64,000 nucleotides of DNA, taken from assembly GCF_900184245.1 (NCBI RefSeq), contig NZ_FXXB01000005.1, forward strand, positions 62,001-126,000, written 5' to 3'. Below the pieces are notes generated by a model. It made no database searches and was not told where the DNA came from. It was given only the letters and a program-made list of their open reading frames with translations. The first letter of the stretch is position 1. The number at the start of each line of letters is the position of its first letter. Shown here piece by piece: positions 9,316 to 53,168 of the stretch. Source of the DNA: Brachybacterium massiliense (lineage in GTDB: Bacteria; Actinomycetota; Actinomycetes; Actinomycetales; Dermabacteraceae). The translations under genes were made by a program, and so were the position numbers.

Positions 9316-11828
9316 TGGAGACGACCCCCACCGCCCTGCAGCTCCTCCACGACCACGCCCGCCTGCCGGGCGCCGGCGCCGTGCTGGAGGCCCAGCAGCT
9401 GTCCGCCCTGCTCGGCAGGGACGTCCACCTGGACCGGGTGCGGATCAAGCCCGGCGCCTCGGTGCTGGTCTCCCACCGCGCCCCCGCGCGTGAGCACGGG
9501 CCCGACGGCGCCGGCCGCGCGGTCGCCGACGTCGGCTGGGCCCAGCTGGTCGCCTCCGCCGACAAGCGCGAGAACGCGCTGCGACGCGCCGCCCGCAGCG
9601 GCGTGCGGATCGACGAGCACACGATCGCACCCGAGGGCCCGTACCTGCTCAGCGGCGGCCTGGACTCCGATCCGCAGCTGGGCCGCGAGATCCACCGCCT
9701 GCTCGGGCGCCTGCGCGGCGCCCCGCTGCGGGTGCTCAGCTACAACCCCGCCCGCCACGCCGTGCTGCTGCTGCCCGGCAGCCGCGAGGTGCTGCGGGTC
9801 TCCGCGCAGCCCCTGGACGACCTGCTGAGGGTGGAGGGCTGCTGGCGCGAGCTGGGCCTGCCCACCGTCCCTCAGCGCCGCTGGCGCGATCGCCCCGGCG
9901 TGCTGATCGGGGAGCAGTGGGGCCACGGCGACCTCGCCCGGCTCGCGCACCACCCCCTGTCCATGCCCGCTGCGACCCGGCTCGGCGGGATCATAGCCCG
10001 CCTCCACGCGGCCGACGTCACCGGCCGCGACCTGCCCGAGGCGCGAGTGGGCGAGCTGATCCCGGTGACCAGCCGGGCCGTCGCCGACCTTCTCCCCGCC
10101 AGCGCGCACCGCATCGAGCGGCTCTCGCAGCGACTGCGCGAGATGCTCGAGACGGGCGGTGACCGGGTGCTGATCCACGGAGACCTCTCACCCGACCAGG
10201 TGCTCGTCTCCGTCGACGAGACCGCCGTGCCCGGCGAGGGCCACCTGCCGCTGCGCGTGGTGGACCTGGACCGCTCGGGACTGGGGCCGCGCGGCGCCGA
10301 CCTCGGTACCTGGATCGCCTCCTGCCTGCTCGCCGGCGTGGAGGAGCAGGCCACCGCCTTCCTGCGCGGCTACGCCCGCCACCTCGACCTGCCGCCGCGC
10401 ACCGAGCTCGCCGCCTGGACCGCCCGCGCCCTGCTCTCCTCCGCCCTGGACCCTATGCGCCGCTACAGCGCGGACTGGCCCGAGAAGGTCGCCCGCCGCC
10501 TCGCGCTCGCCGAGATCGTGCTCGAGCGGCCCGGCCGCCTGCCCCTGCCCGCCCCGGATGCCGTCGAGGTGCGCCGCGGCGCGCAGATCCCGCTGGTCCC
10601 CGCCACGGTCGAGCATGCAGGACGCCTGCTCACCGTGGGCCGTGCCTGGGCGGACGACGGCCGCGGCCTGCCCCTCGAGCTCACCGACCCCGGCGCCGAG
10701 AGCGCCGGGCAGCGACTGCGCGCGGCCCGCCTCGACCCCGCCACCGGCGAGGTCACCGTGCTCGAGTCCGGCACCGATCCGCGCCTGCCGGGCCTGGCCC
10801 GCATGCTCGCCCAGCACCCGGGCGCCGCCGTGGTCTCCCACCGGCCCGGCAAACGCGCCGTGGTGCGGATCGACGCGGCCGCTGACGGCGAGCCGGGGGC
10901 GAGCGGCGAGAGGTTCGTGAAGATCGTCCGCCCCGGCCGCGCCGAGCGTCTGCTGCGCGCGATCGACCGCTCCAGCGCCTTCGACGGCCCCTTCCGCACC
11001 GCCGAGGTGCTCGCCGCCGACGAGGACACCGTCACCTTCGCCGCGCTCGAGGGCCGCCTCCTGCACGACGGGCTGAGCGTGCAGGACGGCACCTGGCGAC
11101 GCGCCTGGCGCGAGACGCTGAGCGCCTGGGCCGAGGCGGTGGACGCCTCCCGTCGGGACCTCAACGCCGCGCTGCCCGCCGGCGCCGAGATAGCGGACCT
11201 CCACGGCCCCTCCGCCGAGCTCGCCGTGCTCGGGGACTGGGCGGGCCGTGCCGCCGCCGTCGACCCCGCCGGCACCGCCGTGCGCGGGCGCGCGCTCCGC
11301 CTCGCCGACCGGGCTCTGCGCGGCCTCGGCGAGGTCGAGCGGCCCGCCCTGATCCACCGAGACCTGCACGACAAGCAGGTCCTGTGGTCTCCGGTGACAG
11401 GACCCGCGCTGCTGGACGTGGACACCGCGACCCTCGGCGATCCCGCCCTCGACGCCGCGAACCTCCGCGCCCATGCCACCTGGCGGGAGCTGCAGGGGAT
11501 CTGGACCGAGGAGCAGGCCGCGGTGGTGCGCGAGGAGGTGGACCGCGTCGCGGCCCTCGGCGGGATCCGCCCCGAGACCCTCGCCGCCTACGAGAGCGGG
11601 ACCATCGCCCGCCTTGCCTGCGTGTACGCCTTCCGGCCCCGTTGGCGCGGTGCGGCCCACGCCTTCGCCGCGACCCTTGACCCCACCGGCACCTCCGCTG
11701 CGGACGGCACGGCCGGCGGGGCCGGGCGTCCTGGCGGGGCCGGTGAGGCCTGCGTGGCCGGTGAGGTCTGCGTGTCCGGTGTGGACGGCACGGTGGGCGG
11801 GAGGGACGGTCGAGTACTGGCGCCATGA
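9315..11828 (+). CDS. protein with two kinase-like (APH/choline-kinase) domains
   Basis: The ATG at 9315 overlaps the exporter stop; an adjacent in-frame GTG at 9312 is possible. The 837-residue product holds two aminoglycoside-phosphotransferase-fold catalytic cores. The first has LIHGDLSPDQVLV (His 288, Asp 290) and VVDLDR (Asp 317). The second has LIHRDLHDKQVL (His 681, Asp 683) and LLDVDTATLGD (about 701-703). Both replace the usual Asn of the catalytic loop with Gln, and both keep the metal-binding Asp. It presumably phosphorylates a sugar or other small hydroxylated substrate in this pathway. The last ~40 residues are a Gly/Ala/Val tail made from degenerate repeats, and the final codons and TGA come from palindromic element C. 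Family is clear; substrate unknown. Confidence 0.82.
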   Translation: METTPTALQLLHDHARLPGAGAVLEAQQLSALLGRDVHLDRVRIKPGASVLVSHRAPAREHGPDGAGRAVADVGWAQLVASADKRENALRRAARSGVRIDEHTIAPEGPYLLSGGLDSDPQLGREIHRLLGRLRGAPLRVLSYNPARHAVLLLPGSREVLRVSAQPLDDLLRVEGCWRELGLPTVPQRRWRDRPGVLIGEQWGHGDLARLAHHPLSMPAATRLGGIIARLHAADVTGRDLPEARVGELIPVTSRAVADLLPASAHRIERLSQRLREMLETGGDRVLIHGDLSPDQVLVSVDETAVPGEGHLPLRVVDLDRSGLGPRGADLGTWIASCLLAGVEEQATAFLRGYARHLDLPPRTELAAWTARALLSSALDPMRRYSADWPEKVARRLALAEIVLERPGRLPLPAPDAVEVRRGAQIPLVPATVEHAGRLLTVGRAWADDGRGLPLELTDPGAESAGQRLRAARLDPATGEVTVLESGTDPRLPGLARMLAQHPGAAVVSHRPGKRAVVRIDAAADGEPGASGERFVKIVRPGRAERLLRAIDRSSAFDGPFRTAEVLAADEDTVTFAALEGRLLHDGLSVQDGTWRRAWRETLSAWAEAVDASRRDLNAALPAGAEIADLHGPSAELAVLGDWAGRAAAVDPAGTAVRGRALRLADRALRGLGEVERPALIHRDLHDKQVLWSPVTGPALLDVDTATLGDPALDAANLRAHATWRELQGIWTEEQAAVVREEVDRVAALGGIRPETLAAYESGTIARLACVYAFRPRWRGAAHAFAATLDPTGTSAADGTAGGAGRPGGAGEACVAGEVCVSGVDGTVGGRDGRVLAP

Positions 11829-11881
11829 CGAGGCGTATGCCGATATCTCCGTAGTCATCGCCCCTCGTCCCGTACTCGACC
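11808..11881 (+). repeat. 74-base palindromic element, copy C (best palindrome)
   Basis: Begins GGTCGAGTAC and ends with its exact reverse complement GTACTCGACC; GATATC at 11842-11847 is the exact centre. I count 23 of 37 arm positions pairing. It overlaps the end of the double-kinase gene, which reads GGT CGA GTA CTG GCG CCA TGA. Confidence 0.9.
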
Positions 11882-12008
11882 ACCGGTCCCGTACTCGGCG
11901 ACCCCGGACCGGGGTCTGAGCACCCGGACCTCTCCTCCCCGACCACGGTCCGTCCACAAAGCCGCTCCCTCACTCCCGCCCCGGCCCAGTTTCGCCTGTA
12001 CTGCTCGG

Positions 12009-12980
12009 ATGAAGATCCCGGGAGTCGCGCACAGGTCGGACCTCGCCGGGCTCGGCATCAGTGATGCCGATCGCCGGCGTCTGCTCCGCCGAGGACGAAT
12101 GTCGCGGACCGGTACCTGGTACGTCACCGATGAAGCGCCCGCGGACCTCGTCCGCCTGCTCGCTCGCGGGGTGCGCCCCACCTGTGTCTCCGCGGCTCAG
12201 CATCACGGACTCTGGGTGCCGCTGCACGAGGGTGACCACGTGTACCGCCCCCGCGGGCTCGCAGCCGTGGAGCCGCGCCGGGACGCCGAGGTGACCGGTG
12301 GCGGAGCAGCGATGACAGGCGGGGACGCCGTGGTGACCGGCGGCGGAGCAGTGATGACGGGCGCGCTCGCAGCGGCGAGCGGCGGGGGAGCCGCGGCGAT
12401 CGGTGGGGACGCCCTGGTGACAGGTGGGGACCTGGTCATGCACGGCTCCGCGATGAGGAGCTGGCCGGACCGCGATCCGATCGCCGACCTGCCTCTCGCT
12501 CTCGAGCACGCGATGCGCTGCCTGTCCGTCCGGGACGCCGCGATCCTGCTCGAATCCGCGCTGAACCGGCGGAAGATCTCGAGGAGCGAGGTGGTACGAC
12601 TCCTCGCGTCGCTGCCCGCGGCGCTTCGCGCGCAGCTCTCGAGGGTCACCCCGCTGTCCGAATCGGGAACCGAGACCGCGGTGAGGTGGTGGCTGGAGTC
12701 GCTGCACGTGCCGGTCACCCCGCAGGTGCGGATCCCCGGGGTGGGTCGTGTCGACCTCAAGCTCGGCACGAGCTGGATCATCGAGTGCGACAGCACCACC
12801 TATCACGACAATCCCGAGCAGTACCACCGGGACCGGGCCCGTGATCTGCGCCTCCAGGCTCGTCGCTACATGGTCACCCGACTCACCTGGGAGCAGGTCT
12901 TCCTCGACTGGGAGGAGACCAAGGCACAGCTCCTCACGATCCTCCGCCGCCGCGACCACCGGCGCCCCCTCGCCGGCTGA
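12009..12980 (+). CDS. DUF559-type endonuclease-fold protein with AbiEi-like N-terminus
   Basis: The 323-residue product starts with a basic helix-turn-helix-like stretch (SDADRRRLLRRGRM, about 18-31) like the N-terminus of AbiEi-type antitoxins, and ends with a Vsr-like/DUF559 domain: GRVDLKLG followed by IIECDSTTYHDN (about 244-270), the Asp...Glu acidic pair of that nuclease fold. Such proteins are common in Actinobacteria; their role is not established. Residues ~95-144 are a Gly/Ala/Thr run coded by imperfect tandem repeats (12288-12440), unlike the flanking sequence, which looks like a slippage insertion between the two domains. It stands alone between repeat elements. No partner toxin gene is seen. 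Confidence 0.75.
   Translation: MKIPGVAHRSDLAGLGISDADRRRLLRRGRMSRTGTWYVTDEAPADLVRLLARGVRPTCVSAAQHHGLWVPLHEGDHVYRPRGLAAVEPRRDAEVTGGGAAMTGGDAVVTGGGAVMTGALAAASGGGAAAIGGDALVTGGDLVMHGSAMRSWPDRDPIADLPLALEHAMRCLSVRDAAILLESALNRRKISRSEVVRLLASLPAALRAQLSRVTPLSESGTETAVRWWLESLHVPVTPQVRIPGVGRVDLKLGTSWIIECDSTTYHDNPEQYHRDRARDLRLQARRYMVTRLTWEQVFLDWEETKAQLLTILRRRDHRRPLAG
12288..12440 (+). repeat. imperfect in-frame tandem repeat inside the DUF559 gene
   Basis: Units such as GTGACCGGTGGCGGAGCAG and GTGACCGGCGGCGGAGCAG recur, coding TGGGA-type peptides. The repeat separates the N-terminal from the nuclease-like domain and probably varies in length between strains. Confidence 0.65.
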
Positions 12981-13317: not shown

Positions 13318-16300
13318 GGCGGTGAGGGCTCGGCGGCGCTGGACGACGGCGCCGGCCAGACCCAGGGCGAGGCCGAGCACGAGCCAGCCGCCCAGCCACA
13401 GCAGATCTCCGGTCGGGTCGATCCAACCTCCGCCTATCGCGCCGCGGAAGGCGTCCACGGCGTGAGTCATCGGCAGGAACGGGTGGATCACCTGGAAGAA
13501 CTGCGGCAGGGTCGGGACCGGATAGGTGCCGCCCGCCCCCGAGATCTGCATCGCGATCAGCACCAGCGCCACGAACTTCCCGACCGGTCCGAACAGGGCG
13601 CCGAAGCCATGGTTCAGGGCCACGAACACTGCGGAGGTGAGGGCGGCCAGGCCCATCATCAGCGGCAGATCGTCCACCGAGACCCCAACGAGCCAGTGGA
13701 GGGCGCTCACGGCGATGGCGGTCTGCACCAGCCCCAGCAGCTGTGCGGGCAGCAGACCGCCGGCCAGCAACCGCACCGGGCCCACGCCGCGGGCTGCGGC
13801 CGCGGCGGAGAACGGCGGCATCATCAGGAAGATCGCCATACCGCCCACCCACAGGCTGATCGCCAGGAACAGCGGCGCGAGGCCCTCCCCGAAGCGGCCG
13901 AGCTCGTGCTCGCGCTCGAAGCTCATCTTCACGGGCTCTGCGGCGGTCTCCGAGAGGGTGTCGCTCTCGTCGTCGTTGTAGGCGGGGATGTCGTCCTGGG
14001 ATTCGGCGAGCCCGTCGCGCAGCTCCTCCGCACCGTCCGCGAGCTCGCCGGCTCCGTCGTCGAGGCTGACCGCGCCTTCGGCCAGGTCGCCCGCACCGTC
14101 ATCGACGCGCTCAGCCCCGTCGTGCAGGCGCGTGGCGCCGTCCTCGAGCTGCCCGGCGCCGTCAGCAAGCCGCTGGGCACCCTCGCCCGCCTCTGCGGTG
14201 CCGTCGGCCAGCTGCCTGGCGCCGTCCTTGAGGGCACCGGTGCCTCCGGCGAGCTGCTCGGCGCCGCCGCGGGCGGTGCTCACGCCGTCCGTGTAGCGGG
14301 TGACGCCGCCGGAGAGGGTCTGTGCGCCCTCGCTCGCGGTGCCGCTCGCCTCGGCGAGACGGTCCGCGCCCGAGGCGACCTCCTGAGCGCCGGTGTTCAG
14401 GCGGCGCGCGTCCTGTGCACCCTGTTCGAGTGCACCGTAGGCCTCAGGCAGCGCCTCTGCGGCGGTGCGGGCCTGTTCGGCGAGATCAGCGGCGAGGTCG
14501 GAGGCGTTCGTGCTCGATTCGGGGGCGGGTGCGGCCGTGACGGCCTCATCGCGCAGGCCGGTGAGGTCCTGTTCGAGGGTCGAGGCGCTCTCGGCGAGGG
14601 TGCCGGTGCGCTCAGTGACGGAGGAGGTGGTGCCGGCGAGAGTCGAGGTGGTCTCCGAGAGTCCCTCGAGATAGGTGACCATCGAGTCCGCGGAGTCGCT
14701 CATGCCGGAGGCGGTCTCGGCGATCTCCGTCGACCGCTCGGACGCGGCACCCGTGGCCTCTGCGGTCGCGCGCGCGTCGGTGGAGGCCTGCGTGGCGTCC
14801 TCGCGCACCTGCGGCGAGGAATCCGCGATGCGCGTGAGCTCCTCGCAGAAGGCGGCGTCGGCGCCGGATTCCTCGCAGCGTGCGGCGAGGTCGTCGACCT
14901 GCCCGGTGTATTCGCGCACGCTCTCCTCGGCGGTGGCCGCGCTGCCGGAGGCGGTGGTGGCGGCCTCGTCCGCGGTCTGGATCTCCTCGTCCGATGCGGT
15001 GGCGTCCTCGCCGATCGTGGCGGCGCCGTCGCGCAGCGTACGAGCGTCCTCAGTGCGGTCGGCGGCGGACCTGTCGAGGTTCTGCGCGGTCTCGTCCAGC
15101 CCGGTCGCGGTCTCGTCGAGCGCGGTGGCGGTCTCGGAGAGGGTGCCGGCGGTGGTGACCGGGCCTTCGAGTCGCCCGGGGAGGTCCGTGGCGATCTCCT
15201 CGAGCGTATCGATCGCGGTGACGAGGTCCTCGCTCGTGCGCTGGACGCTCTGCGAGGTCACGCCCAGCTCCTCTGCGCGCTGCTGCGCGGCGGTGACGCT
15301 CTCGTCGAGCCGACGGGTGCCCTGGGCGACCTGCCCCGCGCCGTCGGCGAGGGTGCCCGCGCCGGTGGCCAGTTCCGATGTGCCGGTGGCGAGCTGTTGG
15401 GCGCCGCTGCGCAGCGGCTGTCCGTTCTCGTCGAGGGTCACCAGGCCCGTGCGCAGCTCCTGGGCACCGGCGTCGAGTCGCGCGGTGCCGTCACGCAGGG
15501 TCACCGCACCGGCGCTGAGCTGGTCCAGGCCCACCACGAGGTCGAGTCCGCCGGTGTGCAGGGCGCCGGCCCCGTCGGCCAGGTCCGCGCTGCCGTCCAC
15601 CAGCTGTCCCGTGCCGTCGGCGAGCTCGGCGCTGCCGTCGACGAGGTCCCCGGTGCCGTCGTGCAGGGTGGTGGCGCCGTCGGTGAGCTCGCCCGCTCCG
15701 TCCACGGCGTCGCCGAGGCCGTCGTGGATGGTCGTGAAGCCCACGTAGATCTGGCCCAGGTACTGCTCGAGCACGCTCGAGCGCAGTGAATCGGTCAGTG
15801 CCGTGCCCACCGACTTGGTGAAGTTGCCGCCCACATAGTTGATCGAGTCGTTGGTGGTCACGGTCAGCAGGGCGGGGGCGGCCTCCTCGGCGTCCCCGCC
15901 GAGGGAGGCGATGTTCGCGGAGAAGTCGGAGGGGATCTCGACGGTCGCACCGTAGGTGCCGTCGGCGAGCCCCCGTTGTGCCTCTCCGGGGGATACCTCG
16001 ACAAAGCGGTAGACGGTCTCCTTGTCCAGGTCAAGCAGCGTCTCCGTGAACTCCGCGCCCACCTCCAGCTCGGTCTCCTGGCCGTCCGGGGCGGTGGCGG
16101 TGGCGCCCTCGTCCTCGTTCACCACGGCGGCGGTGACCTGGTCGAGATTGTTGCTCGGGTCGAGGAACGACCAGGTCATGTTGCCAGAGTAGACCAGGGG
16201 GACCGTGGCGAGGCCTGCGACGAACAGGGCCGCGATCGGCTTCTTCCACTCTCCCGGCAGCAGCGCCACGAACCCGCGCCCGAGAGCGGAGAGTCCTTGA

Positions 16301-46862: not shown

Positions 46863-46920
46863 ATCGAGAAGATGTGCAGGTCGCACGGGAATGTGTCCGA
46901 GATGCTGGCACGATGTCACC

Positions 46921-47985
46921 GTGACTGACGCCCTCATCGACCAGGTGATGCCCTCGCTCGGCGAGAACGGGGTGCTCGGACTGGGCGAGCCCACGCACGG
47001 CAGCGCGAACGCCTTCGCCTGGAAGCTCGAGCTGATCTGCGAGCTGGCCCGACGGGGCGTGCTCGCGGCCCTCGCGTTCGAGGAGTCCTTCACCGTCGGC
47101 CTCGAGGTGGATGCGGTGCTGCGCGAGGGCGGTGACCTCGGCCGGGCCTGGGCGAAGGGCAGCTCGATCTGGCGCACGGCGACGATCCTCGAGGGGCTGC
47201 GCACCCTGCAGCGGATCAGCGCGACCCTCTCGCCCGAGCGGCGGCCCCGCTTCCTGGGCGTCGATGTCTCCAAGCCCTATCGCACGGCACGGGCCCTGCT
47301 CGAGCGCGGGCATGACGCCTCGCTGCTGCGAGCGGTCGCCGATCGAGCACACCTCTCGATCGCCGACGCCGCAGACCTCGAACTGCTCTGCCGGTCCCTC
47401 GAGGACGAGGCGGACCCGACCGCCTCCGCCCTGGCGCGGAACCTCCGCCGCTGGGCCGACGCCTACCCGGCGGCCCCTGATCTCTCCCGTCTGCACCTCC
47501 GGGACAGCCATATGGCGCACACGCTGCTCGAGAACCTTCCCGATCGCGGGATCACCGTGCTCTGGGCGCACAACGAGCACCTCGCTCGGAACCCGGAGGG
47601 CTGGGGCGGGCCGACGATGGGGCACGTGCTCCGCGCATCGCTCGGCTCGCGCTACTACCCCGTCGGCATGCTCTGCGGAGACGGGGAGTGCCGGGCCGTG
47701 GACCCCTCCACCGGCGGCGATGACCACACCGCCGTGCCCCTGCCGCCGCTGCGCCTCGGCACCACCGATGCGGCGCTGCGCGAGCTCGGCCGCACCTTCG
47801 TGACCGGCGAGGAGTTCGATCATCCCGGACCGCGCCGCTTCATCGGCTGGCAGGTGGACACCTCCCTGTTCGGCGACGCCCGGGAAGTCGCCGACACCTT
47901 CGAGGTGGCACGTCCGTCCTCGGACTTCGCGGCGCTCGCCTTCCTGCCCGAGAGTACCGCCGACATCGGGTACGAGCCCGCCTAG
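46921..47985 (+). CDS. erythromycin-esterase-family protein
   Basis: 354 residues from GTG 46921; the choice is supported by the deleted copy at 44516, which starts at the matching point. ATG 46891 upstream is an alternative. EreA/EreB-like features: GLGEPTHGSANAFAWKLEL (Glu 23, His 26), LAFEESFTVG (Glu 54/55) and VLWAHNEHLAR, the histidines and glutamates of the lactone-hydrolase centre. Proteins of this family hydrolyse macrolide lactones, or in the case of succinoglycan-related members unknown esters. Whether this one confers macrolide resistance is untested. Divergent from the ArsR/SulP pair. Confidence 0.87.
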   Translation: MTDALIDQVMPSLGENGVLGLGEPTHGSANAFAWKLELICELARRGVLAALAFEESFTVGLEVDAVLREGGDLGRAWAKGSSIWRTATILEGLRTLQRISATLSPERRPRFLGVDVSKPYRTARALLERGHDASLLRAVADRAHLSIADAADLELLCRSLEDEADPTASALARNLRRWADAYPAAPDLSRLHLRDSHMAHTLLENLPDRGITVLWAHNEHLARNPEGWGGPTMGHVLRASLGSRYYPVGMLCGDGECRAVDPSTGGDDHTAVPLPPLRLGTTDAALRELGRTFVTGEEFDHPGPRRFIGWQVDTSLFGDAREVADTFEVARPSSDFAALAFLPESTADIGYEPA

Positions 47986-50208: not shown

Positions 50209-51132
50209 TCATGACATCGCTCCGTGGTTCTCCGTGGGGTGCGGCACCCGCACCGCGATCGTCACCGGCCCGCCGGCGGCGTCCTGCCGGGCGGTGGCCT
50301 CTCCGCCGAGCTGTTCGGCCAGGACGCGCACGATCGACAGGCCGAGCCCGCTGGTGCGGGCGGTGCGAGAGGAGTCCGCGGTGTAGAAACGGTCGAACAT
50401 CCTCGCGGCCTCGAGCCGATGCTCGCCCTCCACACCGTTGGTGACCTGCAGCAGCGCCTCCCCGTCGTTCATCGAGAGAGCGATGTGGAGCCGGTCCTGT
50501 CCGTGCTGGACGGCGTTGCGCAGCAGGTTCTGGACGATCCGGGTGAGCTTCTCGCGATCGGTTGCGATGACCAGCTGCGTCGGCGGATCGAACTCCACCT
50601 CGAGCCCGGCCGCCTCGATCGGCCCCGCCATCCCCAGCAGACATTCGCCGGTCAGCACTCCGAGATCGACCTGCTCCACCTCGAGCTCCGCCTGCGCATC
50701 CAGCAAGTAGGCGTACTCGTACAGTCGGTCCACGAGGGCTCCGAGCTCGACCGTCTGCCGGTGCGCGACCGCGAGGCGTTCCCGCTGGAGCTCATCGAGG
50801 TCGGTGCGCTCCAGCAGCTGCAGGTAACCGCGCACCGTGGTCAGCGGAGTGCGAAGGTCATGGGAGATGTCCGCGATGAAGGAGCGGATCCGCCGCTCCT
50901 CCTGCCGGGTGCGGGTCGAGGCCTCCCGAGCCTGACGCACCGTGTCGTTGACCCTCGAGGCGAGCCGCTCGAGCTGCGGCGTCACCAGAGACAGCGTGAC
51001 GACAGCCTGGGAATCCTCCGCCAGGCGCCGCTCGAGCTGCCGGCGCACCTGCACGATCTGCCGGAGCACGATCAGCAGGTAGGCGAGCGTGGCCAGCCAC
51101 AGCACAGCCAGCACCACGAGGAGGACGATCAC
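50209..51132 (-). CDS. sensor histidine kinase
   Basis: 307 residues from GTG 51132. One N-terminal membrane helix (VLLVVLAVLWLATLAYLLIV) and no extracellular sensor domain, so it is an intramembrane-sensing type. HisKA: FIADISHDLRTPLTTVRGYL with phosphoacceptor His 91. ATPase: N-box LTRIVQNLLRNAVQHG and G2 box RTSGLGLSIVRVL. The matching response regulator is probably the one at 54197-54904, across the ABC-2 exporter genes. Such kinases usually detect peptide antibiotics or envelope stress through a neighbouring ABC transporter. The gene is separated from the exporter genes by the low-GC cassette. Confidence 0.93.
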   Translation of the reverse strand: MIVLLVVLAVLWLATLAYLLIVLRQIVQVRRQLERRLAEDSQAVVTLSLVTPQLERLASRVNDTVRQAREASTRTRQEERRIRSFIADISHDLRTPLTTVRGYLQLLERTDLDELQRERLAVAHRQTVELGALVDRLYEYAYLLDAQAELEVEQVDLGVLTGECLLGMAGPIEAAGLEVEFDPPTQLVIATDREKLTRIVQNLLRNAVQHGQDRLHIALSMNDGEALLQVTNGVEGEHRLEAARMFDRFYTADSSRTARTSGLGLSIVRVLAEQLGGEATARQDAAGGPVTIAVRVPHPTENHGAMS

Positions 51133-51465
51133 CCTGGTGAGCCTACGTCCAGGATGCCAGCACTGACGTGACGGAGTATTGCTGGGTGGGTGGAAAGGCG
51201 CCTCCAGCGTCCACCTAGAGAGCTAGTTGAGGAGCCTCGTCAGGGCCTTCACTCCGGCTCCGACGAACTGGACCTCGAGTCGTACCCAGCACCTGTTGCC
51301 TATGGATGCCGACCATGAAATGTAGCGCACCCAACTGGCGGAGGGTGGTCCTCGTAGGTTGACGTCTATCGCAACCTGTGCCTAACGTGAGAGTTGTCAT
51401 AGCCGAAACGTTGGCCTCGGGGCGACAGCCGATTCGCGGCGACGGCGTATTTTGAGGAGGATATT
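51133..51465. other. 333-base leader and promoter region of the low-GC cassette
   Basis: No credible gene. Base composition drops from the surrounding level, and stops are frequent in all frames. A promoter-like TTGACG/TAACGT pair lies near its end. It probably marks the left edge of imported DNA, starting soon after the kinase gene's start at 51132. Confidence 0.6.
51359..51388 (+). promoter_or_regulatory. candidate promoter of the secreted-peptide cassette
   Basis: TTGACG (51359-51364) and TAACGT (51383-51388), 18-base spacer, about 77 bases before the GTG start. The -35 is a near-consensus housekeeping hexamer; the -10 is weak but usual for Actinobacteria. Confidence 0.35.
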
Positions 51466-52017
51466 GTGCGCCGCAGGAATTTTGGTCGCGTTGCTCTGCT
51501 GGGGGCGGTAGCCGTCACCGCATCGATCGCGGGTGGTTCGAGTGCACTTGCTGAGCCTGGGCGGTCGAAGGTGCTTGAGGAAGTGTTTGGCGCCGACGAT
51601 CTCGAGTATCTCGACTCTCGCCCTGAATTGAGGTCGATTGTTGAAGAAGACATGGAGGGCGCCTCTAATGAGAGTCTACGAGGCGCATTGGCCGAGTTGA
51701 GACGACTTGAGGATGCGGGAGACGCCGCTCCTTCAGGCGGAACTAGGGGCTCCAGGGATGGTGGTGACATTCGTCCCGCAGGTGGAGTCTGCGTGACCGT
51801 CTACAAGTGGATGATCATTGCGTTGAGCTGGGAGATGAGGCTCAGGGGCGCGGTCATGGGTGTCGGGGCTGGCCTCGTTGCTTTCACCGTTGCTGGGCTT
51901 CCTGCCGCCGCAGTCCTTGGGTCGCTGGGTGTCGGCGTTGGAATGACCGGCGAAGGTCTCAAGAACTGGGCGAATGAACGGACTTGGCCAAAGAACGTTT
52001 GTCTCACCGTGAGCTAA
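51466..52017 (+). CDS. secreted glycine-rich two-cysteine protein, candidate antimicrobial precursor
   Basis: 183 residues from GTG 51466, behind a near-perfect GAGGAGG at five bases. A Sec (or twin-Arg-like MRRRNFGR) signal peptide ends at SSALA-EPG (about residue 29). Then comes an acidic, helical pro-region (about 30-105) and a hydrophobic Gly/Ala/Val domain (about 107-183): GGVCVTVYKWMIIALSWEM, GAVMGVGAGLVAFTVAGLP, ending TWPKNVCLTVS. Only two cysteines exist, near the two ends of this domain, so a disulfide could close it. Codon use is A/T-richer than the neighbours (31 G/C of 60 in 51601-51660). It sits within a two-component/ABC-2 locus, as bacteriocins often do. No family recognised; toxicity is a hypothesis. 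Confidence 0.75.
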   Translation: MRRRNFGRVALLGAVAVTASIAGGSSALAEPGRSKVLEEVFGADDLEYLDSRPELRSIVEEDMEGASNESLRGALAELRRLEDAGDAAPSGGTRGSRDGGDIRPAGGVCVTVYKWMIIALSWEMRLRGAVMGVGAGLVAFTVAGLPAAAVLGSLGVGVGMTGEGLKNWANERTWPKNVCLTVS

Positions 52018-52030
52018 GTTTGGGAGGTTG

Positions 52031-52168
52031 ATGGATATGCTTGCTGATGTATTCGGAAGTGTAGTAGTTGCCATTCCTTTTCTGGCAATGGCGTTCATAG
52101 GTGGTGTTGCTGCAGAGCGCCATCGCGCTCAAGGTCGCAAAGGCTCTCGGGAGTTATCCGATCTGTAG
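52031..52168 (+). CDS. 45-residue one-helix membrane protein, candidate immunity peptide
   Basis: ATG 52031 with GGGAGG seven bases upstream, only 13 bases after the secreted-protein stop, so the two genes form a unit. The 45-residue product starts MDMLADVFGSVVVAIPFLAM, continues as one transmembrane helix to AFIGGVAAE, and ends with a basic cytoplasmic tail (RHRAQGRKGSRELSDL). DNA is very A/T-rich for this genome (26 G/C of 60 in 52021-52080). Size, topology and pairing suit a bacteriocin immunity or processing-helper peptide. No family recognised. Confidence 0.65.
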   Translation: MDMLADVFGSVVVAIPFLAMAFIGGVAAERHRAQGRKGSRELSDL

Positions 52169-52385
52169 TGCACATATCACTGGGCATGAGCGCCGGGCAC
52201 TTGGGCAGGATATGGCGCGTGTCTTGAATGTGCTCCGGCCGAATGCGAAACGAAGTGACGCGAAGAGGCGATGTGAAGCCTTTGCGCATAGTGCCAGTCA
52301 GGGACCCGTTCCTTCGTCGCCGCTCCGGGACTACAACGTCGTGACCCGCAACAGATAGAACCGTAGCTCGGAGTGGATCCCGCCC

Positions 52386-53168
52386 TCACTTCACGTCGGC
52401 CCGGCGGAAGATCAGCCAGGACACCAGCCCCATCACTGCGATGAATACCGCAGAGACCGCGAGGGTCCCCAGCAGCTCCCCGCCGCTGGAATCCACCGTG
52501 GGCAGGTGCTCGAGCGCGAAGGGGGTCAGCCTCACCAGCGCGTCGAGGCCCTGGATCTCGGAGAGCTCGCCGGCCAGCAGATCCGCGAGGAAGGACCACA
52601 CGAATCCGGCCGCCATCACCACCAGCGGGCGCTTGAGCCAGATCGCGAGCGGTAGGCACACGGAGAGCTTCGCCGCGGTCAGCAGTCCGCTGGTCAGCGT
52701 GATCGCCAGGATCGACCGGACCTCCCCGGCATCCAGTGCCCCTCCCTCGGCGAGCAGCAGCGAGAAGGCGGTGGGGATCGCCGGGGCGAACTCAGCCTCG
52801 GTCGCCCGACCCACCAGCACGGCCAGGCCGTAGGGAAGCGACAACGCTGTGACCAGGCCTGCCGCGATCACCGTCTTCGAGGCGACAAAGGCGCCGCGCC
52901 CCGAGGCGAGCAGTGCATTGTGCACCGACTTCGTCTCGAACGGCTGGGAGACCACCACGCCGAACAGCAGCGGGCCCAGCAGCGAGACGAGCAGGATGTC
53001 GCTCAACCCCTGCACCCCGCTCGCGGCCTCCGGACCCAGGGAGCCCTGGGCCAGGACGTGCTGCAGCCAGGTGTACAGCACGGCCGCGACCGTGCAGGCC
53101 AGCAGGCACAGGACGGCCGGGCCGCTGTGTCGCAGCACGTACAGATCAGCACGCAGCTGGTTGATCAT
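52386..53168 (-). CDS. ABC-2-type transporter permease (peptide-antibiotic resistance type)
   Basis: 260 residues with six membrane helices of the ABC-2/LanE-like fold: AVLCLLACTVAAVLYTWLQH, ILLVSLLGPLLFGVVVSQPF, FVASKTVIAAGLVTALSLPY, and AVFIAVMGLVSWLIF at the end. ETKSVHNALLASGRGAFVAS is the expected coupling-region wording (many such permeases have a G-x-G-R near it). Its ATG overlaps the ATPase stop (4 bases). Together they should export or expel a peptide antibiotic or lipid-active compound, as in LanFEG or BcrAB systems. The minus-strand gene ends next to the low-GC cassette. Confidence 0.87.
   Translation of the reverse strand: MINQLRADLYVLRHSGPAVLCLLACTVAAVLYTWLQHVLAQGSLGPEAASGVQGLSDILLVSLLGPLLFGVVVSQPFETKSVHNALLASGRGAFVASKTVIAAGLVTALSLPYGLAVLVGRATEAEFAPAIPTAFSLLLAEGGALDAGEVRSILAITLTSGLLTAAKLSVCLPLAIWLKRPLVVMAAGFVWSFLADLLAGELSEIQGLDALVRLTPFALEHLPTVDSSGGELLGTLAVSAVFIAVMGLVSWLIFRRADVK

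What the first reader, a model, noticed from the sequence alone, without database searches (positions are those of the whole stretch)
51133..52385. Low-GC cassette coding a secreted two-cysteine protein plus a tiny membrane protein inside a two-component/ABC-2 locus
The cassette is on the opposite strand to its neighbours and visibly A/T-rich (31 of 60 and 26 of 60 G/C in two sampled lines). It has strong ribosome sites and codes a signal peptide-acidic pro-region-Gly/Ala-rich hydrophobic domain closed by two Cys, then a 45-residue one-helix protein with a basic tail. Around it lie a histidine kinase, a LanFEG/BcrAB-like ABC-2 exporter and an OmpR regulator, which is the usual company of peptide antibiotics and their self-resistance. 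I propose a horizontally gained, undescribed bacteriocin-like system.
Basis: partly seen in the sequence, partly recalled or inferred. Interest (0 to 1): 0.82.

Follow-up and report, generated by a model that had tools for sequence, protein, structure and literature searches.

The report
Mobile bacteriocin-like toxin with immunity gene
A small imported DNA cassette in a Brachybacterium-type bacterium carries a secreted two-cysteine protein and a tiny membrane protein that together look like an undescribed weapon-and-antidote pair, dropped by chance into a regulatory operon.

Summary
A 1,253-bp stretch (59% G+C, in a 72% G+C window) lies between a permease and a histidine kinase gene, on the opposite strand. 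It encodes a 183-aa secreted-type protein and a 45-aa one-helix protein.

In all six other genus genomes with this permease, the kinase follows after 9-189 bp, so the cassette is an insertion. Credible relatives of the secreted protein turned up in only two other Brachybacterium genomes, in other settings: a tandem pair in an island bounded by a 108-nt repeat, and a 5'-truncated copy near a tRNA gene. Two subtypes occur. The second has a convergent two-helix protein downstream (2 of 2). The first has, in the window, the 45-aa protein, whose only credible genus relative sits 23 nt behind the tail of an IS-broken first-subtype gene. Twice, then, the secreted gene is broken and the small membrane gene intact, as expected for toxin and immunity.

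No sequence library, PDB sequence or fold search gave a significant match. Best reading (0.6): an undescribed bacteriocin-like toxin-immunity family, membrane-acting by inference. The link to the kinase/transporter is not supported. Against: one first-subtype copy lacks the 45-aa partner; no activity data.

The parts
51133..52385 (.). inserted low-G+C cassette between permease and histidine kinase genes
   Evidence: 58.9% G+C vs 72.0%; in 6 of 6 other genus genomes with the permease the kinase follows after 9-189 bp
51466..52017 (+). putative secreted toxin precursor, 183 aa: signal peptide (about 1-29), acidic pro-region (30-90, net charge -10), linker (91-108), two-Cys hydrophobic domain (109-183, net +3)
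   Evidence: ORF and translation; relatives at 43% and 26% identity in tandem in G025; region charges; region limits set by eye
51790..52014 (+). putative mature domain, Cys109 to Ser183; Cys109 and Cys179 are the only two Cys and fall in the first and last predicted strands
   Evidence: 36 of 75 residues identical to G025 copy 1; Cys positions; AlphaFold2 model of residues 105-183, pLDDT 76.4, pTM 0.65
52031..52168 (+). putative immunity protein, 45 aa (43 aa if ATG 52037 is the start), one transmembrane helix and basic tail
   Evidence: best 19-residue hydropathy 2.26; relative in G035 at E 1.5e-6, 23 nt behind the tail of a broken first-subtype gene
50209..51132 (-). histidine kinase of the interrupted operon (native, not part of the cassette)
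   Evidence: HisKA and HATPase_c; follows the permease in 6 of 6 other genomes
52386..53168 (-). permease of the interrupted operon (native; ABC-2 type inferred from neighbourhood)
   Evidence: 65-78% identical relatives in 6 of 37 other genus genomes; no Pfam match

Best explanation
The cassette is a self-contained, horizontally exchanged toxin-immunity unit of a bacteriocin-like kind. The 183-aa precursor is exported by its signal peptide; the acidic pro-region (net -10) probably keeps the basic, hydrophobic C-terminal domain harmless until it is cut off. The released domain of about 75 residues is probably closed by a Cys109-Cys179 disulfide that ties its first and last strands together, and inserts its Gly/Ala-rich hydrophobic stretch into the membrane of related competitors. 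The 45-aa one-helix protein, encoded 13 nt downstream, sits in the producer's membrane and blocks the domain. Shown here: the gene pair, the family, the insertion, different membrane partners for the two subtypes, and two cases of a broken secreted gene with an intact partner. Inferred: export, cleavage, disulfide, membrane killing, immunity.
For: Precursor layout is conserved in three full-length proteins. Tandem divergent copies occur in G025. The second subtype has a convergent two-helix protein downstream, found in exactly the 2 of 38 genus genomes in which that subtype was found. The only other credible 45-aa relative (G035; 1 of 37 other genus genomes) starts 23 nt behind a truncated first-subtype tail, WPQRVCVSVN-stop; that tail pattern occurs at three distinct places in 536,264 translated residues of held loci (overlapping loci counted more than once), all in this family. 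In G028 the gene has lost its first 68 of 174 codons, in G035 nearly all, and in both the small membrane gene is intact. Different genomic settings: permease/kinase junction, island behind a SRAP gene with a 108-nt repeat (81%), neighbourhood of tRNA-Arg. No credible hit outside the genus in samples of 396 genomes of the order and 396 of the phylum.
Against: The first-subtype copy of G025 has no 45-aa partner: the second toxin gene starts 36 nt after it, the 45-aa query finds nothing in G025, and a scan of the surrounding 1.9 kb (thresholds on hydropathy and ribosome site) finds only the two-helix gene. So the 45-aa protein is not an invariant partner. Two broken/intact cases are few. No match to a bacteriocin family model. 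No processing or export gene in the cassette. The alignment behind the model is four sequences deep. No activity data.
Confidence: 0.6

Rival explanations
1. A secreted signalling or surface protein (pheromone, adhesin, matrix or cell-wall protein) whose small membrane partner helps its export or anchoring, with no killing role.
For: Signal peptide, conserved two-Cys domain and a short membrane partner fit this as well; no toxicity data; no bacteriocin-family match; one copy lacks the 45-aa partner.
Against: Patchy presence (3 of 47 family genomes, plus a remnant in G035), divergent tandem paralogues, different membrane partners per subtype, and loss of the secreted gene with retention of the partner twice are expected for toxin-immunity pairs and not for an export helper.
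Confidence: 0.2
2. A distant offshoot of the SDP (SdpC) cannibalism-toxin family that lost its SdpA/SdpB partners.
For: Similar layout (signal peptide, helical pro-region, hydrophobic segment); profile comparison with 11 actinobacterial SdpC-like proteins gives a weak match in the pro-region only (probability 14%, score 27.7; 0 of 200 region-wise column shuffles reached it, best 22.4).
Against: TIGR04032 does not match the window protein; no SdpB match in the genome at E up to 10; with a revised SdpC alignment probability fell to 9.3% (score 25.8; reversed control 13.1), and single members score 19.3 (in the signal peptide), 18.9 and 16.1 against a best of 18.6 among 127 control ORFs; the hydrophobic domains do not align, and the SdpC-like proteins read here continue beyond the hydrophobic segment.
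Confidence: 0.1
3. An accessory part of the kinase/ABC module, e.g. a secreted ligand or sensor peptide for that system.
For: Position between permease and kinase genes; the ABC ATPase resembles lantibiotic-protection ATPases (TIGR03740, 219.6 bits, cut-off 309.75).
Against: Permease and kinase are adjacent without the cassette in all 6 other genomes with the permease, the cassette splits the operon in the opposite direction, and relatives of the secreted protein lie on other contigs than the operon in G025 and G028.
Confidence: 0.08

Closest known systems
SDP/SdpC sporulation-delaying toxins (TIGR04032), as in sdpABC
   Same: Secreted precursor with signal peptide, helical pro-region and hydrophobic segment; faint profile similarity in the pro-region.
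   Different: No TIGR04032 match and no SdpB match in the genome; toxin-like domain at the very C-terminus; hydrophobic domains do not align; different candidate immunity proteins.
Lactococcin 972-like bacteriocins of Gram-positive bacteria
   Same: Small bacteriocin with linked membrane-protein genes; in Brevibacterium such a cluster sits in a genomic island at a tRNA gene (PMC5719810, passages seen).
   Different: No match in Pfam or NCBIfam at E up to 1 for the window proteins; no ABC ATPase gene in the cassette itself; acidic pro-region here.
Circular bacteriocins such as AS-48 (comparison from recall)
   Same: About 70-residue hydrophobic, net positive domain whose ends are brought together, with a small membrane immunity protein.
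   Different: Here the ends would be joined by a disulfide and not by a peptide bond; signal peptide and long pro-region present; fold relation not established.
LanFEG/BcrAB-type ABC transporters with two-component systems
   Same: The interrupted native operon (regulator, ATPase, permease, kinase) resembles these.
   Different: It is not part of the cassette, and the ATPase scores below the curated cut-off of TIGR03740.

Membership tests
SDP/SdpC toxin family | match to TIGR04032 (toxin_SdpC) | tested here: not met
   Own-genome search at E up to 10 gave one match below the cut-off, on another contig, and none at the window locus; no such NCBIfam match either
SDP/SdpC toxin family | SdpB maturation partner in the genome | tested here: not met
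   TIGR04033: 0 matches at E up to 10; of 14 control genomes one passes the cut-off, B. subtilis heading the list
SDP/SdpC toxin family | related pro-region | tested here: inconclusive
   hhalign probability 14%, then 9.3% with a revised alignment; above shuffles and the reversed control, single sequences barely above or below the best control ORF
described bacteriocin families with Pfam/NCBIfam models (lactococcin 972, circular and class II types; recalled as present there) | sequence-model match | tested here: not met
   No bacteriocin model at E up to 1 for the window proteins; none for the relatives in Pfam at E up to 1 or NCBIfam at E up to 0.1
bacteriocin-like toxin-immunity systems (functional kind) | linked immunity gene specific to the toxin subtype | tested here: inconclusive
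   Two subtypes with different membrane partners, but G025 copy 1 lacks the 45-aa partner
bacteriocin-like toxin-immunity systems (functional kind) | killing of sensitive cells and protection of the producer | not testable with these tools
   needs a bench assay
lantibiotic-protection LanF ATPase (TIGR03740), for the flanking operon | score above curated cut-off | tested here: not met
   219.6 bits against 309.75
circular bacteriocin (saposin-like) fold | fold match | tested here: inconclusive
   Foldseek: 6 PDB matches at E<=10, none at E<=0.001; VIA-align: one row at Z 2.1 of 14 chains

The most novel reading that the evidence does not exclude
An undescribed class of actinobacterial bacteriocin: a propeptide-guarded domain of 70-75 residues closed by a terminal disulfide, whose subtypes are each tied to an unrelated one- or two-helix membrane immunity protein, and which moves as a minimal two-gene cassette without its own transporter, regulator or modifying enzyme.
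Probability: 0.45. Interest if true: 0.65.

Novelty: new variant of a known kind. Interest (0 to 1): 0.5.

Why it matters
If active, it is a minimal two-gene weapon that the bacteriocin models in Pfam and NCBIfam miss, and it offers a clean natural experiment: occupied and empty sites, two toxin subtypes with different partners, and strains that keep only the presumed antidote. It would also show how immunity genes can be exchanged while a toxin scaffold is kept.

Tried and rejected
Sequence libraries: Pfam, NCBIfam, PHROGs and PADLOC gave nothing useful for either window protein. The 45-aa protein's Tad match (E 0.062, below cut-off) was judged a chance membrane-helix match; phrog_20984 on G025 copy 1 (E 0.0042, residues 8-76, signal and pro-region) was not followed. 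PDB by sequence: 0 matches at E up to 10 for the 183-aa protein. Plasmids and phages by tblastn, and plasmids by blastn with the whole cassette: none. IMG/VR with the alignment: none of 28 candidate stretches. Genome contigs with the single protein: none of 98 candidate stretches; with the alignment: 2 loci of 83.

Dropped rows. (47 genomes; 7 with E<=0.01; 8 rows): G004, G006, G023 and G026 (E 0.0046-0.0076) were dropped as chance by frame length and score; not read one by one. (396 genomes; 11 with E<=0.01): the nine other than G000 and G025 (E 0.003-0.01) were dropped; their frames, read, look like other proteins or shadow frames. G028 is not among the hits; whether it was drawn is not shown. 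(38 genomes): G012 (E 0.05, inside a 430-aa frame) dropped. (356 genomes; 4 with E<=0.01): G306 and G372 (E 0.002 and 0.006; frames of 370 and 127 aa, read) dropped. (396 genomes): only the query. For SdpC, 13 matches in 11 of 296 genomes; 11 proteins were aligned, L046 and L048 left out; none passes the curated cut-off.

Structure: the full-length model is poor (pLDDT 59.8) with no PDB match at E<=0.001; the domain model likewise has none, and its single VIA-align row (Z 2.1) was taken as chance. No viral fold library was searched.

SdpC: see rivals; not adopted. The 127 control ORFs are any-frame ORFs of 150-260 aa, many of them shadow frames. Promoter/terminator scan: nothing beyond chance. 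Repeats around the cassette: no convincing target-site duplication.

Papers: Brachybacterium with bacteriocin (108 papers, 15 listings seen) and with antimicrobial peptide plus immunity protein (1 listing) showed no such system in what was listed; other searches were (listings only). PMC5719810 was seen as passages. No paper was read whole.

Full report
Observation. The window belongs to a Brachybacterium-type genome: genus-mates G025 and G028 share contig lengths with Brachybacterium sp. EE-P12 and FME24, and for G025 also identical sequence over 3,507 bases. Between a permease gene and a histidine kinase gene, both on the - strand, lies a 1,253-bp stretch with 58.9% G+C in a 72.0% window; of 628 stretches of its length only two, both overlapping it, are as low. 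It carries two + strand genes with ribosome sites: 51466-52017 (183 aa) and 52031-52168 (45 aa, or 43 aa from ATG 52037, which is better spaced from the ribosome site).

Anatomy. The 183-aa protein has a basic signal peptide (about 1-29), an acidic pro-region (30-90, net -10), a Gly-rich linker (91-108) and a C-terminal hydrophobic domain (109-183, net +3) with one Cys near each end, the only two in the protein (limits set by eye). The 45-aa protein has one hydrophobic helix and a basic tail. Neither has a useful match in Pfam, NCBIfam, PHROGs or PADLOC; the 183-aa protein matches no PDB chain at E up to 10.

The cassette is an insertion. The permease has relatives (65-78% identical) in 6 of 37 other genomes of the genus; in all six a kinase relative follows, 9, 28, 69, 77, 141 and 189 bp after the permease stop. 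In the window the gap is 1,253 bp, and the extra DNA starts right after the permease stop and ends just before the kinase start. No clear target duplication was found. Several relatives have a GGGAG-type site before the kinase start that the window lacks, so kinase expression may have suffered (sequences; inference).

Relatives of the secreted protein. Searching 47 genomes of the family gave seven with E<=0.01, of which three are credible: G000 (self), G025 (43% and 26%, in tandem) and G028 (31%, C-terminal part). A sample of 396 genomes of the order gave 11 with E<=0.01, of which only G000 and G025 are credible; the frames of the other nine were read and are other proteins or shadow frames. 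A sample of 396 of the phylum gave only G000 at E<=0.001. Named genome contigs gave EE-P12 and FME24 with the alignment and nothing with the single protein. Plasmids, phages and IMG/VR gave none. The family is narrow in the collections searched.

Two subtypes. The window protein and G025 copy 1 (first subtype) have 71 residues from first to last Cys; G025 copy 2 and the G028 copy (second subtype) have 64 and differ in the middle of the domain. The G028 copy has a third Cys. Shared by all four: C-x2-V-[YH]-x-W near the start of the domain and W-x5-[WFL]-P-x2-[VF]-C near the end. Region by region, window against G025 copy 1: signal peptide 9 of 25, pro-region 19 of 53, linker 8 of 18, domain 36 of 75 identical; nucleotide differences at codon positions 1-3 are 77, 66, 124.

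Small membrane partners differ by subtype, with an exception. Downstream and convergent to the second subtype lies a two-helix protein of about 70 aa, 42% identical between G025 and G028, found in exactly these 2 of 38 genus genomes. The window's 45-aa protein has one credible relative in the 37 other genus genomes (G035, E 1.5e-6): 43 aa, 18 of 40 aligned residues identical, with AAGGAG before its ATG. Its ATG lies 23 nt behind the stop of a first-subtype tail, WPQRVCVSVN-stop (window: WPKNVCLTVS-stop; G025 copy 1: WPRNVCVTVK-stop), whose remainder is missing next to a transposase fragment (HTH_Tnp_1, E 3.4e-7). The tail pattern WPxxVCx[ST]Vx-stop occurs at three distinct places in 536,264 translated residues of the loci held (overlapping loci counted more than once), all in this family. 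The exception: G025 copy 1 has no 45-aa partner. The second gene starts 36 nt behind it, the 45-aa query finds nothing in G025, and a scan of 1.9 kb for short hydrophobic ORFs with a ribosome site finds only the two-helix gene.

Broken secreted gene, intact partner. G028's gene lacks the part matching the first 68 of 174 codons of G025 copy 2; the homology starts directly behind a 14-nt tandem repeat (L003:1374-1443). Its two-helix partner is intact, with AGGAGG upstream. G035's gene is reduced to its tail while the 43-aa partner is intact. Two such cases, with different partners, are what selection for immunity predicts; the number is small.

Mobility. In G025 the tandem pair lies in a stretch of about 7.4 kb bounded by 108-nt direct repeats (81%) of the 3' end of a SRAP gene (PF02586, E 1.4e-53); the stretch also holds a transposase/resolvase-type HTH protein. 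In G028 the gene is 188 bp behind tRNA-Arg. In G025 and G028 the kinase/permease operon lies on other contigs. The neighbourhood of the window cassette is therefore best read as an insertion site and not as a dedicated regulatory or resistance module.

Fold. Modelled alone with four sequences, the domain gives strand (with Cys109), helix, poorly predicted middle, two helices, strand (with Cys179); pLDDT 76.4, pTM 0.65. That the two strands pair and the two Cys form a disulfide is inferred; coordinates were not examined. Foldseek: 6 PDB matches at E<=10, none at E<=0.001; VIA-align: one row at Z 2.1, rmsd 2.8, 50 residues.

Compared with known systems. SdpC was the strongest lead by layout. TIGR04032 does not match at this locus and SdpB not in this genome. 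Profile comparison with 11 actinobacterial SdpC-like proteins (all below the curated cut-off) gave a weak match confined to the pro-region: score 27.7, above all 200 shuffles (best 22.4). With a revised SdpC alignment including a Niallia protein annotated as an SDP-family toxin the score was 25.8 (reversed control 13.1), while single members score 19.3, 18.9 and 16.1 against a best of 18.6 among 127 control ORFs. So it may work like SDP, but is not a member on present tests. Brevibacterium strains, several from cheese, carry genes weakly homologous to sdpABC and lactococcin 972-like clusters, one of the latter in an island at a tRNA gene (PMC5719810, passages).

Verdict. The most likely reading is an undescribed small bacteriocin-like toxin-immunity family moving between Brachybacterium genomes (0.6). 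Secretion, cleavage, disulfide, membrane action and immunity are inferred and need the bench.

Noticed in passing
L021:7750-15314: In EE-P12 the island with the tandem genes also holds a cysteine-peptidase-like protein with a signal-like start (10986-12065; NCBIfam NF045837, 38.4 bits, below cut-off 45) followed by a membrane-type protein (12066-12572), and another small secreted-type two-Cys protein (14067-14483) followed by a membrane-type protein (14530-14997): possibly further toxin-immunity pairs; no family names found.
   Followed up: partly
window 51080-51180: The insertion ends just before the kinase start codon; the kinase lacks the GGGAG-type ribosome site seen in several congeners, so the two-component system may be poorly expressed here.
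   Followed up: partly
L036-L048: SdpC-like matches to TIGR04032 at E<=0.001 occur in 11 of 296 sampled genomes of the class, none above the curated cut-off, so SDP-like toxins of actinobacteria may be under-reported.
   Followed up: partly
window 46891-47985: ORF matching the erythromycin esterase family (PF05139, E 5.2e-23).
   Followed up: partly
L003:1374-1443: Short 14-nt tandem repeat exactly where homology of the truncated G028 gene begins.
   Followed up: partly
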